The translations under genes were made by a program, and so were the position numbers. The notes under the pieces were generated by a model that made no database searches, had not been told where the DNA came from, and saw only the letters and a program-made list of their open reading frames with translations. This document shows positions 6,078 to 32,664 of a DNA stretch of 37,180 nucleotides, one piece after another. The stretch comes from Bacillota bacterium. GTDB lineage: Bacteria > Bacillota > Dethiobacteria > DTU022. Each line of letters starts with the position of its first letter. Position 1 is the first letter of the stretch. The stretch spans positions 1 through 37,180 of the forward strand of contig JAGYMW010000017.1 in the NCBI GenBank assembly GCA_018400435.1, read 5' to 3'.

Positions 6078-6758
6078 ATGGTTAGAGAAAAGAACGAAGC
6101 AGATCAAGACCTGGACAGGCTGCTGGATGATCTTGAATATATTAAGAAAGCAGTTTCCAAACGGAACAACATTTTTAACTTCATGGAAGTTGCCAAGGCT
6201 ATCCGGCTTGCAGCCCTGCTTTCGGGGTTGTTGATCATTTTTATATCGACAGTGCTTTATTTACTTATCAGGCAGTACGGCTCTTATCACCTTATGCCCG
6301 GTCAAACGAGGCTGTATCTCTATTTATATATTGCCCTGGCCATTATCTTTATTGCCGTTTTAAAACTGCGCAGTTTTCTGCGCAAGGCCAGGGAAATCGA
6401 TTCCACTATTACCCTCAGGGATCTCGTTGCTGCTATTTATACCAGTCACTTTATTGAAATTATGATTCCCTTTCTAATTGTCCTGGTCGGGGTGCCCCTT
6501 TATCTGAGCACTGCCAGTCTTGACCGACTAATTCTTCCGTTCACTGCTATTATCTTTGGACTACTGTGTTTTGCCATATCCGGTCTGCTTTATTTCAGGT
6601 CCCTGCTTTTCCTGGGAGGGTGGCTGTTGCTGGCAGGTTTTACTTTCCTTTTCTGGTTGCCCGGACTTCATGAACTGTTCCAGATCATTATCAGTTTTGG
6701 CCTCGGGTTTTTGATCATGGGCGCCGCAGGTTATGTCCGTTCCTCCCGGGAGGAGTAA
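6078..6758 (+). CDS. Multi-pass membrane protein of unknown function
   Basis: 226 aa, several hydrophobic segments, RBS AGGAGG upstream, first gene after a strong promoter. Confidence 0.85.
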   Translation: MVREKNEADQDLDRLLDDLEYIKKAVSKRNNIFNFMEVAKAIRLAALLSGLLIIFISTVLYLLIRQYGSYHLMPGQTRLYLYLYIALAIIFIAVLKLRSFLRKAREIDSTITLRDLVAAIYTSHFIEIMIPFLIVLVGVPLYLSTASLDRLILPFTAIIFGLLCFAISGLLYFRSLLFLGGWLLLAGFTFLFWLPGLHELFQIIISFGLGFLIMGAAGYVRSSREE

Positions 6759-6763
6759 TCAGA

Positions 6764-7101
6764 TGGCTGAGAAGAGTAATAAACAACCGGAAATAGATAA
6801 GATTATTCACGAGCGAACCCGGCTGTTAATCTTAAGCTATCTGGCTGCCGGCGAGGTGCGCAGGGTTCCCTTCACCGAGCTAAAGGAAACCCTTGAATTG
6901 ACGGCAGGCAATCTCTCCGTTCATCTGCGCAACCTTGAGGATGCCGGCTATATAAAAATAAGCAAACGTATCGTCGGCCGCAAACCTGCCACCGATATTA
7001 TTATCGCAACGGAGGGGATGACTGCTTTAAACAGATATCTTGCTGAAATGGAAAGCCTGATCAACCGGGTGAAGAGTTCTGGTGACACGGGAGGGAGGTG
7101 A
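6764..7101 (+). CDS. Winged-helix (ArsR/MarR-like) transcriptional regulator
   Basis: MAEKSNKQPEIDKIIHERTRLLILSYLAAG...LTAGNLSVHLRNLEDAGYIKISKRIVGRKPATDIIIATEGMTAL; RBS GGAGGAGTAATCAG; start 6764 preferred over the ORF-track start 6733. Confidence 0.85.
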
Positions 7102-15574: not shown

Positions 15575-16624
15575 TCAGTCCAGGATCCGTTTCCTCAGCA
15601 GAACAGCGACAATCACCAGCACAATGATCATGGCCAGGGCAATGAGCAACTCGAACCAGACTGTGCCCAGAGGTTTTCCCATAATTGATACTTCCCAGAT
15701 CGGGCTGATCACCCAGTAAAGAGGAAAAATTTTGGCAATCCACTGAGGCCAGTCTGGGAACAGATAAAAAACAACGGGGATGAAAAGAAAAAACCCCAGG
15801 CCTTTGATCAGGGTAAAAAGCATTGTGGCGGTTTTTGAATATATGCCGATCAGAAGCCCGATCATCGAAGTGAGGGCGGCGGCGATTACTATGACAACCA
15901 TCACTTCAAGGGGCCGCGGTCCAAAAGCGCGATTTAAAAGAAGGGTAGCAGCTGCCAGAAATGTGGCAAAAAGAAAGCCCATTAGCCACTTGGCAACAAG
16001 CACTTCATTGATCATGGCCGAGGTTACCAGCATGGCGGTCAGGGTTCCCTTTTCTTTTTCTTCGACAAGACTGGAACTGGGCACCCACATGCCGGACATA
16101 GCCAGGGCATAGAAGACAATGATCGGCACCAGCCGGATCGAAATGGGCAGGCCTGGTTCACCAAAGAAGACCGTTTCCACCTCCACAGGAGGTTCTTTGT
16201 TTTCAAGACCGCGGATCATTTCAATAGCCGTCACTGAGATAATAATCCGGTTTGAAGCAAGGCTCTCTCCGCTTAAATAAAATTCCAGGGTCGGTTTTTC
16301 TCCTCCCTGAACCGCTTCGTCGAAACCGGGTTCAAGCACCAGGCCGGCATCGAAATCGTGTTTTTCCACCTGTTCGATCAGTTCATCGGGGTCTTCCAGT
16401 ATTATTACTTCAAAACCTTCCAGTTCCTGCACGGCGGAGGTAAGTGATGATTCTCCTAGATCAACTATCCCCAGCCTCGGTTTTGGCTCGAAAAGCGAGC
16501 CAAAAGCAAACTGGAAAAGGAGAGTCAGGGCAAAAGGCAGCAGCAGGGCCCAGATAAAAAATGGTTTCCGCGGTCCAACGGCGAAATCTTTGCCTAAAAT
16601 TTTTAAAATCCGGTTTATGCTCAT
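15575..16624 (-). CDS. ABC-2 type transporter permease
   Basis: MSINRILKILGKDFAVGPRKPFFIWALLLPFALTLLFQF...; PSSSLVEEKEKGTLTAMLVTSA; start 16624 overlaps the upstream stop (ATGA). Confidence 0.88.
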   Translation of the reverse strand: MSINRILKILGKDFAVGPRKPFFIWALLLPFALTLLFQFAFGSLFEPKPRLGIVDLGESSLTSAVQELEGFEVIILEDPDELIEQVEKHDFDAGLVLEPGFDEAVQGGEKPTLEFYLSGESLASNRIIISVTAIEMIRGLENKEPPVEVETVFFGEPGLPISIRLVPIIVFYALAMSGMWVPSSSLVEEKEKGTLTAMLVTSAMINEVLVAKWLMGFLFATFLAAATLLLNRAFGPRPLEVMVVIVIAAALTSMIGLLIGIYSKTATMLFTLIKGLGFFLFIPVVFYLFPDWPQWIAKIFPLYWVISPIWEVSIMGKPLGTVWFELLIALAMIIVLVIVAVLLRKRILD

Positions 16625-17865
16625 AATGTGGCCACCTTCCTTTTTAGGACAAACAGGCCGACGCTGTATATCACTACTGCCCACAACAGAGCATAGAGCA
16701 GCCATCCAAGGGAATCCGCCCAGAGGGCGTCATAAATAGTGACATCGTAAAGGAGTCTGACGATAGGATAGCTGGGCAGCACACTGACCCAGGAAGCTAC
16801 CGAACCGGGAAATAGCACGGCAAAGGAAGGAATGAGCAGGGGGATCAGGAACAGCAGGCTAAACATCAGCTGGCCGATAAAATCTTTCCCGGCGGCTCCG
16901 ACAAACATTGCTACTGCAGTGAACAGCAGAGAACCCAGCAGAATGATAGTCAGGAGCAGGTGCCAGTTATCGGTGGTGAATGACCCGACGAAGAGCAGAA
17001 CGATCACCGACTGGCTCATGGCCAGGGCTGTGCCGAAAATAGTTTTAGCCAGGAGGAAGTGCCATACTTTTAGCGGTGTGACCAGCAGGGCGGTTACCGT
17101 TCGCTGTAGGACTTCGTTGGAAATCAGCGAGGCCAGGGCGAAAGTCTCCATCATCATTATGAAGAAGGCCAGGAGCGGTCTCATTTTTCCTCGCAGCGAT
17201 ATTTGATCTCCCAGGCGGTCTTCACCGAGAATAATAGCTTCTTCATCGGGCAGTTCAACCGGCAGCTCATAACCGGCCACCTGGTAAGCCAGTTCGCTGA
17301 CAAAACCTTCCATGGCATTCCTGATTTCATCAGGTACTGCGGCATCGGCGTAAACAGTCACTTTCGGTTTTTCACCAAGCGCAGCGTCCCGCAGGAAAGT
17401 GGGCGGAAAAGACATGCCAATGTCCAGATTAACTTTTTCTGCTTTAGCCGGTTTTTTTTGATCCCCTGCCGGGTCATGGATAATAAATTGACCTTGATCA
17501 GTCCTGTAAACTTCCAGTTCCCCGCGAATCACCTTTTTGAGCTCTTCTTCATTTTCGAATTCAACCAGGCCAAGGCCCTCTTCTTCAAAACCCGCTTCAA
17601 TCTCTTTTGCCTGTTCAAGAACTGATTCCGGAACGCCCTGAGCAGACAGCGATTTCAGCCCATCGTTGACGAGAACTGAAATTGGAGGAGTAATGGCAAA
17701 GTTAATATCTTCATCGACCGTGTCCGGGACAATCCAGTAGATGACCACAAAAAAAACCAGGCTGATTACAGTAAGGAATATATAAATCATATTGCGACTG
17801 TAAAGCCGGAGATCTTTTTTCAGAACAGCCAAAAGCAAGCTGCTGTGGGATGTTTGATTTTTCAT
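16621..17865 (-). CDS. ABC-2 type transporter permease with large extracytoplasmic domain
   Basis: N-terminal TM, about 200-aa soluble insert, then ISNEVLQRTVTALLVTPLKVWHFLLAK and further TMs; start overlaps the ATPase stop (ATGA). Confidence 0.88.
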   Translation of the reverse strand: MKNQTSHSSLLLAVLKKDLRLYSRNMIYIFLTVISLVFFVVIYWIVPDTVDEDINFAITPPISVLVNDGLKSLSAQGVPESVLEQAKEIEAGFEEEGLGLVEFENEEELKKVIRGELEVYRTDQGQFIIHDPAGDQKKPAKAEKVNLDIGMSFPPTFLRDAALGEKPKVTVYADAAVPDEIRNAMEGFVSELAYQVAGYELPVELPDEEAIILGEDRLGDQISLRGKMRPLLAFFIMMMETFALASLISNEVLQRTVTALLVTPLKVWHFLLAKTIFGTALAMSQSVIVLLFVGSFTTDNWHLLLTIILLGSLLFTAVAMFVGAAGKDFIGQLMFSLLFLIPLLIPSFAVLFPGSVASWVSVLPSYPIVRLLYDVTIYDALWADSLGWLLYALLWAVVIYSVGLFVLKRKVATL

Positions 17866-19109
17866 CCTGCCAGCCCCCTGCCGGTTAGTTTAATAAATAT
17901 TGCTTCCAGGGTGGCTTCTTCGGTGTGAATGGTCAGCAGGTCAGGTGAGGCGGCCAGTTCACTGAGGCGGGTGGATGATCTTTCGCCGTCCAGGGGAAGC
18001 TTTTCTACTCGCACGCCATCTCCGTCCCGCAGGCGGACCCGTACTGACCTCTGGCCATATTTCTGTTTCAGGTTTTCCGCTGTGTCCAGGGCCACAATCT
18101 GGCCTTCATTGATGAAGGCCACTCGATCAGAAAGCTCATCGGCTTCAAGCATATTGTGAGTAGTAAGCAGAACTGCTGCACCCCGGTCAGCTTCTTCTTT
18201 TATGGTTTTTCGTATCTGGGCTGCGGTTACCGGATCAAGGCCGTCCGTCGGTTCATCCAGGAAGAGGATGTTCGGTTTGTTGATAAAAGCGCGGGCAACC
18301 ATCAAACGCTGCCTCATTCCCTTGGAATAATTGGCCACCCGATCTCTGGCCCTGTCAGCAAGCCCTACGCGGCGCAGGGCTTGCAGTGATTCGGGATTGT
18401 GAATGCCGAATAGAGAGGCAAAAAAATTGAGGTTTTCCAGAGCGGTCATCTCGAGATAGAGATTTTTTTCTTCAAAGGTTACCCCGATCTGTGCTTGTAT
18501 TTCCGGATCATCCCTGCCTGCTTCCCGGCCCAGGATACGCGCTGAACCGCTCTGCAGGTCCAGTTGTCCCGTCAGCACCTTGATGGTTGTTGATTTACCG
18601 GCCCCGTTCGGGCCGAGAAAACCGAGTATTTCACAGGGATAGACCTGGAAACTGATTTCTTTGACTGCCTGCAGGCTGCCGTACCGGTGGCTGAGATTTT
18701 TTACATCTATAGCCGGTGCGGTAGTTTTATCGGTTCCGACCCGGCTTTTCAACGCAGGTTGCGATTCGTTTTTTTCCTTTGTTTGCGGTTCCTCCACCGG
18801 CTCGACGAATTGGCCCTCTTTCCAGAGCCCCTTCAATTTTTTACCGTCCGGCCGGGCATAGATGCCGTATCCGTTACGTTGACCTTTAACAAAGTTTCCC
18901 CTGTAGGCAGCCCCGCTGTCAAATACCATTGTTCCCTTTCCGTGCGGTTTACCCTCGTTCCACTCGCCGTCATACCTGGTGCCGTCGGGCATGATAAGTC
19001 TACCCCGGCCGTGGGGAACGCCGTTTTTCAGCACTCCGGCGTATTTTCCTCCCATCCAGGGGATACTCTGCCGTTCGGGAGTCTTTTCATGCTCAGCCAA
19101 ATTTGCCAC
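17862..19109 (-). CDS. ABC transporter ATP-binding protein with N-terminal MORN repeats
   Basis: MORN repeats GGKYAGVLKNGVPHGRGRLIMPDG / TRYDGEWNEGKPHGKGTMVFDSG / AAYRGNFVKGQRNGYGIYARPDG / KKLKGLWKEGQFV; ATPase Walker A GPNGAGKST, signature YSKGMRQRL, Walker B ILFLDEPTDGLDP. Confidence 0.92.
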   Translation of the reverse strand: MANLAEHEKTPERQSIPWMGGKYAGVLKNGVPHGRGRLIMPDGTRYDGEWNEGKPHGKGTMVFDSGAAYRGNFVKGQRNGYGIYARPDGKKLKGLWKEGQFVEPVEEPQTKEKNESQPALKSRVGTDKTTAPAIDVKNLSHRYGSLQAVKEISFQVYPCEILGFLGPNGAGKSTTIKVLTGQLDLQSGSARILGREAGRDDPEIQAQIGVTFEEKNLYLEMTALENLNFFASLFGIHNPESLQALRRVGLADRARDRVANYSKGMRQRLMVARAFINKPNILFLDEPTDGLDPVTAAQIRKTIKEEADRGAAVLLTTHNMLEADELSDRVAFINEGQIVALDTAENLKQKYGQRSVRVRLRDGDGVRVEKLPLDGERSSTRLSELAASPDLLTIHTEEATLEAIFIKLTGRGLAG

Positions 19110-30992: not shown

Positions 30993-31949
30993 ATGAGCGG
31001 TATGGACATCGACAAAAAGTTGGCTGTCCGGACGGAAGGTTTGACCAAACAATTCGGGAAAAACCGGCTTGCAGTGGACAACCTTGACCTGGATATTAAA
31101 AAAGGTGAAATTTTTTCCTTGCTTGGTCCAAACGGTGCCGGCAAAACGACCACTATTAAGATGCTCTGCTGCCTGCTTAAGCCGACCGGTGGCACGGCCC
31201 GGATAATGGGTTTGGATATTCTTAAGAATCCGGCTAAGATCAAGCAGATCATAAATGTTTCACCCCAGGAGACGGCTGTCGCTCCCCACCTGAGTGTTCT
31301 GGAGAACCTTGTTCTGGTTGGTCAAATCTACGGGCTGAGCGGCAGGGAGGCGAAACGACGGGCATATCGGCTTATCGAATTGATGAGCCTGAATGAAAGG
31401 CTTCGGGACCCGGCTAACAAACTGTCAGGAGGGCTCCTCCGTCGCCTCAGCATTGCCATGGCCCTTATCTCGGATCCGAAAGTACTTTTTCTTGATGAGC
31501 CGACCCTGGGGCTGGATCCGAAATCGAGAAAAACCCTCTGGTCCCTGATTCGCTACCTGCGGGGTAAGAAAACAGTCCTCCTGACAACTCACTATCTTGA
31601 AGAAGCAGATGCCCTTGCTGATAGGATTGCCATCATTGATCAGGGCAGGCTGGTAGCTCTTGGCACCTCTGAAGAGCTTAAAAGGCAGCTGGGTGGTATG
31701 CAGGTAATGACAGTTAAGGCTGATAGCCTGTCGCCTGCTGCCATGAAGAACCTGAAAAAGATCTATCCGCAAACAGCGATTGCCGATAGTCATCTAATAA
31801 TTAAGGCTGAAAAGCTTGATTTCAACAAAGTAGTTGATCTTTTGCGGGGTGAGGGAGTAAAGATTAACTGGTTATCGATGAAGGAGCCAACCCTGGATGA
31901 AATTTATCTGAAGATCACCGGGAGGAGCAGGGACAATGAGATTATTTAG
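30993..31949 (+). CDS. ABC transporter ATP-binding protein
   Basis: GPNGAGKTT Walker A, NKLSGGLLRRLS signature, KVLFLDEPTLGLDP Walker B. Confidence 0.93.
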   Translation: MSGMDIDKKLAVRTEGLTKQFGKNRLAVDNLDLDIKKGEIFSLLGPNGAGKTTTIKMLCCLLKPTGGTARIMGLDILKNPAKIKQIINVSPQETAVAPHLSVLENLVLVGQIYGLSGREAKRRAYRLIELMSLNERLRDPANKLSGGLLRRLSIAMALISDPKVLFLDEPTLGLDPKSRKTLWSLIRYLRGKKTVLLTTHYLEEADALADRIAIIDQGRLVALGTSEELKRQLGGMQVMTVKADSLSPAAMKNLKKIYPQTAIADSHLIIKAEKLDFNKVVDLLRGEGVKINWLSMKEPTLDEIYLKITGRSRDNEII

Positions 31950-32664
31950 CCTGGCCGGCCGCAACATGAAGGAAATTTACAGGGATCCCATCTCGTTGAT
32001 CCTGGGAATCGGAATGCCGGTTTTACTAATTTTGCTCTTTACCTCTATCGGGAAAGGTGCTCCCGTGGATATTTTCATGGTGGACATGCTCGTCCCGGCG
32101 GTGGCCATTTTCAGTTTTGGGTTTCTAATCATGTTTTCTGCAACCCTGCTGGTTAAGGATCGGCAGAGTGCCTTTCTGACCAGGCTGCTGGCAGCTCCTT
32201 TAACTTCTTCTGATTTTATTCTGGCTTACATATTACCCTTTATACCCTTTGCCCTGCTGCAGATAGCAGCAAGCATGGTTGCCGGTGTGGCGCTCGGAAT
32301 GTCTTTTACCAGCGGTACTTTTTACAGCCTTGCTATTTTAATTCCAGTTGCTGTAATCTGCATTGGTATTGGCATGGTCCTGGGTTCACTTTTTACGGAA
32401 AACCAGGTTGCCGCGGCCGGATCAATCATTATTGTTGTCATATCACTGTTCAGCGGAGCGTGGATGGATCTGGAAATGGTCGGCGGGATATTCGAAAAAA
32501 TTGGTTATATACTGCCCTTTGCTCACGCGGTGGATGCCTCCAGGGCAGTTATAAACGGGGCGCAGCTGTCCGCGGTAAGCGATAAGCTTTACTGGATTGT
32601 TTCCTACCTGGTAGTTTTTATTTGCGCCGGCATTTTATCCTTCTGGTGGAAGACAAAACGATAA
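31936..32664 (+). CDS. ABC-2 type transporter permease
   Basis: Overlaps the ATPase gene; 6-TM ABC-2 pattern; VKDRQSAFLTRLLAAPLTSSDFILAY. Confidence 0.88.
   Translation: MRLFSLAGRNMKEIYRDPISLILGIGMPVLLILLFTSIGKGAPVDIFMVDMLVPAVAIFSFGFLIMFSATLLVKDRQSAFLTRLLAAPLTSSDFILAYILPFIPFALLQIAASMVAGVALGMSFTSGTFYSLAILIPVAVICIGIGMVLGSLFTENQVAAAGSIIIVVISLFSGAWMDLEMVGGIFEKIGYILPFAHAVDASRAVINGAQLSAVSDKLYWIVSYLVVFICAGILSFWWKTKR

What the first reader, a model, noticed from the sequence alone, without database searches (positions are those of the whole stretch)
15575..19109. MORN-repeat domain fused to an ABC ATPase in a translationally coupled exporter operon
The ATPase begins with three clear MORN repeats plus a partial fourth (YxGxxxxGxxHGxGxxxxxxG pattern), then a linker and a complete ABC ATPase domain. 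Two ABC-2 permeases follow, each start overlapping the previous stop (ATGA at 17862-17865 and 16621-16624). MORN repeats are usually linked to membrane/lipid association or scaffolding; I do not recall them as a standard module on exporter ATPases. One inference is that the MORN array senses or binds membrane lipid or a partner protein and regulates transport. The second ABC exporter here (30993-32664) lacks the domain and gives an internal comparison.
Basis: partly seen in the sequence, partly recalled or inferred. Interest (0 to 1): 0.72.

Follow-up and report, generated by a model that had tools for sequence, protein, structure and literature searches.

The report
MORN cap shared by ABC exporters
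In one family of uncultured bacteria, many from soda-lake sediments, a small folded repeat module (MORN) is fused to, or encoded beside, three different kinds of ABC export pump, and once to a light-sensing membrane protein, which suggests an interchangeable docking tag added to otherwise ordinary pumps.

Summary
The ATPase at 17862-19100 (-) starts with three MORN repeats plus a degenerate fourth (Pfam E 1.5e-17), then a disordered linker, then a complete ABC domain. Two ABC-2 permeases follow with 4-bp overlaps. The start is more likely TTG 19100 than GTG 19109. The fusion is real and selected: 16 sequences keep it, with dN/dS about 0.06-0.18 in the MORN part. Seven MORN-less orthologs with the same two permeases show that the MORN part is an accessory, not pump core.

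The wider finding is that this particular module recurs. In 43 genomes of the family it occurs 29 times: 17 on the window-type ATPase, 8 on a distant ABC-2 ATPase, 3 as a small separate gene beside a third ABC-2 exporter (one in the window's own genome), and 1 on a heliorhodopsin. That last copy is 82% identical DNA, ribosome-binding site included, to an ATPase copy.

Best reading: a modular cytoplasmic protein-docking cap. Lipid sensing is not supported. MORN-heliorhodopsins of this clade are published, and MORN fusions there were noted in general; I found no description of exporter fusions. Partner and substrate are unknown. Novelty: new variant of a known kind.

The parts
17862..19100 (-). 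MORN-ABC fusion ATPase, 412 aa, likely start TTG at 19100
   Evidence: Pfam MORN and ABC_tran; start from ortholog alignment
18840..19052 (-). Three MORN repeats (18978-19052, 18909-18977, 18840-18908)
   Evidence: Pfam matches; positions; confident beta-sheet in the model
18804..18839 (-). Degenerate fourth MORN repeat, KLKGLWKEGQFV
   Evidence: Sequence; paired strands in the model at residues 88-101
18723..18794 (-). Disordered linker, residues 103-126
   Evidence: pLDDT below 50; variable in length and sequence between orthologs
17862..18722 (-). ABC ATPase domain and its C-terminal part, with Walker A 18588-18614, signature 18309-18326, Walker B 18249-18269, H-loop 18153-18164
16621..17865 (-). 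ABC-2 permease 1 (ABC2_membrane_3), start overlaps the ATPase stop
   Evidence: conserved in orthologs
15575..16624 (-). ABC-2 permease 2 (ABC2_membrane_3), start overlaps the permease 1 stop
   Evidence: conserved in orthologs

Best explanation
The window encodes an ordinary ABC-2 exporter (presumably an ATPase homodimer on a heterodimer of two permeases) whose ATPase carries a detachable cytoplasmic cap of about 3.5 MORN repeats on a flexible tether. The cap is most likely a protein-docking adaptor. It recruits the exporter to a cytoplasmic partner or scaffold that also serves other membrane proteins bearing the same module (a second ABC-2 exporter family, a third exporter through a separate small subunit, and in one lineage a heliorhodopsin). 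Shown by computation: the fusion, its conservation and selection, the MORN-less orthologs with the same operon, recurrence on other exporters, and sharing of the module with a heliorhodopsin. Inferred: that the cap binds a protein, that the partner is shared, and that binding affects location or activity of the pump. Not known: partner and transported substrate.
For: Fusion in 16 sequences, with the same ATPase-P1-P2 order wherever the contig reaches. MORN-less orthologs keep the operon, so the cap is an accessory. MORN dN/dS 0.06-0.18 versus linker 0.2-0.6 and ABC 0.04-0.07. Confident beta-sheet module (pLDDT 84-92) on a disordered tether. The same module sits on a second ABC ATPase only 31-39% identical to this one (8 genomes), and as a 103-aa gene directly behind a third ABC-2 exporter in G000, G005 and G020. 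In all, 28 of 29 copies in 43 genomes are fused or adjacent to ABC exporter genes. Exporter-type modules form one branch with 100/99 support, apart from the usual MORN-heliorhodopsin modules. One heliorhodopsin has an exporter-type module, 82% DNA identity over 349 bp including the ribosome-binding site, while an 89% identical heliorhodopsin in G017 has no MORN. Precedent for MORN proteins as adaptors: MORN4/retinophilin with class III myosins (PMC4379085).
Against: No partner has been identified. The most obvious candidate, a conserved ~510-aa all-MORN protein, co-occurs (18 of 20 module genomes against 12 of 23 others; Fisher p 0.009, not corrected for phylogeny) but was not found in G028, 95% complete, which has the fusion. 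One lineage (G017) does without the cap. MORN arrays can also self-associate. About 50% identity between modules leaves room for different partners.
Confidence: 0.5

Rival explanations
No outside partner is needed.
For: MORN repeat proteins form dimers and oligomers (PMC7725318); a presumed ATPase dimer carries two caps; the tether is flexible.
Against: The stand-alone module gene beside a third exporter and the single cap on a heliorhodopsin need more than ATPase dimerisation; the cap has only about 3.5 repeats.
Confidence: 0.2
2. Cis regulation: the cap folds back on the ABC domains or permeases of its own pump and changes ATPase activity, for instance in response to salt or pH.
For: The cap lies N-terminal to the ABC domain in both ATPase families and is tethered; the stand-alone gene could be a regulatory subunit.
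Against: The same module type works with different ABC domains and once with a rhodopsin, so a pump-specific contact surface is unlikely; the linker varies in length and sequence; MORN-less pumps exist.
Confidence: 0.15
3. Membrane lipid binding or sensing by the MORN cap.
For: The historical name and older reports on MORN motifs in plant PIP kinases (cited in PMC8612252); the carriers found here are membrane systems.
Against: Vesicle binding by a MORN protein failed in several assays (PMC7725318); an exporter ATPase is already held at the membrane by its permeases.
Confidence: 0.1

Closest known systems
MORN-heliorhodopsins of Dethiobacteria (PMC8612252)
   Same: Same kind of bacteria (MAGs called Syntrophomonadaceae from haloalkaline sediments), same position (typically three MORN repeats at the cytoplasmic N-terminus of a membrane system); that paper states that multiple MORN fusions co-occur in these genomes.
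   Different: The carrier is an ABC exporter ATPase. The usual heliorhodopsin module belongs to a separate branch. The main text names no ABC transporter; its supplementary table of MORN fusions could not be read here.
ABC-2 exporters with one ATPase and two permeases, NatA/DrrA-like ATPase
   Same: Complete ABC domain, ABC2_membrane_3 permeases; ATPase closest in PDB to ABCA-type domains, TM_1403 (4yer) and NosF; permease 1 model weakly resembles ABCH/ABCA/ABCG folds.
   Different: MORN cap at the N-terminus; none of the solved ABC relatives listed matches over the MORN part.
MORN adaptor and scaffold proteins such as MORN4/retinophilin and MORN1
   Same: MORN arrays acting as protein-binding or dimerising modules; the profile of this module finds Morn1, radial spoke head 1 and MORN4 chains in PDB.
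   Different: Eukaryotic and not fused to transporters; no partner known here.

Membership tests
MORN repeat (PF02493) | Tandem 23-residue repeats above the Pfam cut-off | tested here: met
   62.8 bits against 22.5; three repeats singly over the cut-off
MORN repeat (PF02493) | Continuous sheet of beta-hairpins | tested here: met
   AlphaFold model residues 13-101, successive paired strands, pLDDT 84-92; a prediction, not a solved structure
ABC transporter ATPase (PF00005) | Walker A, signature, Walker B, H-loop in order | tested here: met
ABC-2 exporter | ABC-2 type permease genes in an operon with the ATPase | tested here: met
   ABC2_membrane_3 for both permeases; order conserved in orthologs
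ABC-2 exporter | Export of a defined substrate | not testable with these tools
   No substrate could be assigned; permease 1 has no solved relative by sequence
DrrA, GldA or RbbA (named ABC-2 subfamilies) | Score above the NCBIfam cut-off | tested here: not met
   drrA 243.7 bits against 312.45; GldA 188.4 against 402.6; RbbA 179.7 against 1050
MORN-heliorhodopsin type of MORN module | Module groups with those of the published type of MORN-heliorhodopsin | tested here: not met
   Separate branch, 100/99 support; the only heliorhodopsin on the exporter side is L089

The most novel reading that the evidence does not exclude
A mobile 5' gene cassette (ribosome-binding site plus a 3.5-repeat MORN cap) serves in these bacteria as a general docking tag: it is copied onto different exporters and light sensors and plugs them into a common MORN-based scaffold under the membrane.
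Probability: 0.15. Interest if true: 0.8.

Novelty: new variant of a known kind. Interest (0 to 1): 0.55.

Why it matters
Accessory domains on exporter ATPases are one of the ways in which ABC pumps gain regulation or location. A MORN cap recurring on two ATPase families, and as a separate gene beside a third exporter, would be a new type of such accessory and a prokaryotic use of MORN repeats that can be tested. Nature supplies the control: closely related pumps with and without the cap. The heliorhodopsin swap links it to an open question, what heliorhodopsins talk to, because whatever binds the exporter cap may bind that rhodopsin as well.

Tried and rejected
(1) Using the second exporter at 30993-32664 as internal control: too distant (DrrA-like); replaced by MORN-less orthologs. 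(2) A shared all-MORN scaffold (the ~510-aa protein between tatC-like and ybaK-like genes) as the partner: association present, but G028 (95% complete) has the fusion and no match to it, so not established. (3) 'Co-loss' of caps in G017: its ABC and its heliorhodopsin both lack MORN, but another capless member of that rhodopsin branch (G025) suggests that the rhodopsin never had one there, so I do not use it as evidence for a shared partner. (5) Substrate: sequence search of permease 1 found no solved relative and the fold match is weak (model pLDDT 67.7), so no substrate is claimed. (6) Literature for MORN plus ABC: nothing relevant.

Full report
Observation. The window gene at 17862-19109 (-) carries MORN repeats and a complete ABC domain in one frame (Pfam E 1.5e-17 and 3.8e-31; three repeats over the cut-off; motifs). 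Two ABC2_membrane_3 permeases follow with ATGA overlaps. Alignment with orthologs puts the start at TTG 19100 rather than GTG 19109: many relatives begin M-A-E-Y-E-K-T-P-E behind a leader that resembles AAAGGC(T/A)GGT. The AlphaFold model (23-sequence alignment) has the MORN part as a confident beta-sheet (residues 13-101, pLDDT 84-92), residues 103-126 disordered, then the ABC fold. Mean pLDDT is 75.9 and pTM 0.56, so the relative placement of the two domains is not informative.

Orthologs. A scan of GTDB representatives found 22 close relatives (L011-L032). L032 is cut by its contig end. Of the other 21, 14 have the MORN part and 7 do not. The window gene and L045 bring the compared set to 16 with MORN and 7 without. 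The operon order ATPase-P1-P2 is the same in both sets wherever the contig reaches. MORN-less proteins start directly at the ABC domain. In the tree of ABC+P1+P2, all MORN forms plus the MORN-less L023 (G017) form one 100/100 branch, with the other MORN-less forms outside. This fits one gain and one later loss in G017. A position of L023 beside all MORN forms is not rejected (AU p 0.157). Pairwise dN/dS of close pairs is 0.06-0.18 for MORN, 0.2-0.6 for the linker and 0.04-0.07 for ABC (dS values are high, so these are rough).

The module elsewhere. In the window's own genome a 103-aa gene made only of this module (G000:C137, L071) lies directly behind an ABC-2 ATPase-permease pair. G005 and G020 have the same arrangement, and the hydrolase gene that follows in G000 does not follow in them. 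Eight genomes have a second kind of fusion: the same module on an ABC ATPase 31-39% identical to the window's, with a single ABC-2 permease gene of another Pfam family behind it (ABC2_membrane_2) in those examined. No MORN-less version of that second family was seen at the threshold used. In the 43 genomes of the family the module profile finds 29 copies in 20 genomes. By my classification of the fetched loci these are 17 window-type ATPases (one cut by a contig end), 8 second-type ATPases, 3 stand-alone genes and 1 heliorhodopsin. Across 399 genomes of the phylum, matches at E < 1e-40 occur only in this family, and the other MORN proteins inspected have no Walker A motif.

Exchange. The exporter-type modules (both ATPase kinds, stand-alone, and the odd heliorhodopsin) form one branch with 100/99 support, apart from the usual heliorhodopsin modules. 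Mean identity within and between the two ATPase kinds is the same (49-51%), although their ABC domains are far apart. That fits exchange, or fast drift to a common floor. The heliorhodopsin L089 (G063) has a module 81% identical in protein to that of the ATPase L012, and 82% identical DNA over 349 bp starting 38 nt before the start codon. Its rhodopsin body is only 50-53% identical to the other MORN-heliorhodopsins examined, and an 89% identical body in G017 has no MORN. The direction ATPase to rhodopsin is therefore likelier. A misassembled contig cannot be excluded. L013 and L015 show an identity step inside the linker (about 0.7 before, about 0.89 after), which also fits modular recombination.

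Mechanism. The cap is dispensable for the pump core, is under purifying selection, sits on a flexible tether, is present at two copies per pump if the ATPase is a dimer, and occurs on different membrane proteins. That set of features fits a docking adaptor best (0.5). Self-association (0.2), cis regulation (0.15) and lipid binding (0.1) remain. Lipid binding is the weakest of these: the main test in the literature that I could read is negative for vesicles (PMC7725318).

Known and new. MORN-heliorhodopsins in the same clade were published in 2021, with a remark that several MORN fusions co-occur there (PMC8612252). Its main text does not mention ABC transporters and its supplement could not be read, so priority for the bare fusion is uncertain. 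I found no account of the two ATPase families, the stand-alone gene or the exporter-rhodopsin exchange.

Noticed in passing
G000:C102:3852-5381 (L069), L080, L085, L075: A conserved all-MORN protein of about 510 aa without an evident signal peptide, encoded between a tatC-like and a ybaK-like gene; matched, whole or in part, in 30 of 43 family genomes.
   Followed up: partly
L068, L070, L079, L083: MORN proteins with lipoprotein-like N-termini, two of them (L070, L083) with repeated, Ig-like-looking C-terminal parts: MORN arrays seem to be exported as well in these bacteria.
   Followed up: no
L067:5332-6636 (G000:C127): A 434-aa protein with three N-terminal MORN repeats, an acidic linker and one apparent transmembrane helix: another N-terminal MORN cap on a membrane protein in the window's genome.
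   Followed up: partly
window 6078-7101; L016, L020, L027, L028, L031, L045: A gene for an HTH_34 winged-helix regulator, often with a membrane-like protein before it, lies directly upstream of the exporter operon in relatives with and without MORN; the window homologs are about 9 kb away on the other strand.
   Followed up: partly
L013 and L015, about L013:6340: DNA identity jumps from about 0.70 to about 0.89 inside the linker between MORN and ABC, as if the two parts had different recombination histories.
   Followed up: partly
L134 (G017:C92) and L139 (G025:C114): Heliorhodopsins without a MORN cap in the same family as MORN-heliorhodopsins.
   Followed up: partly
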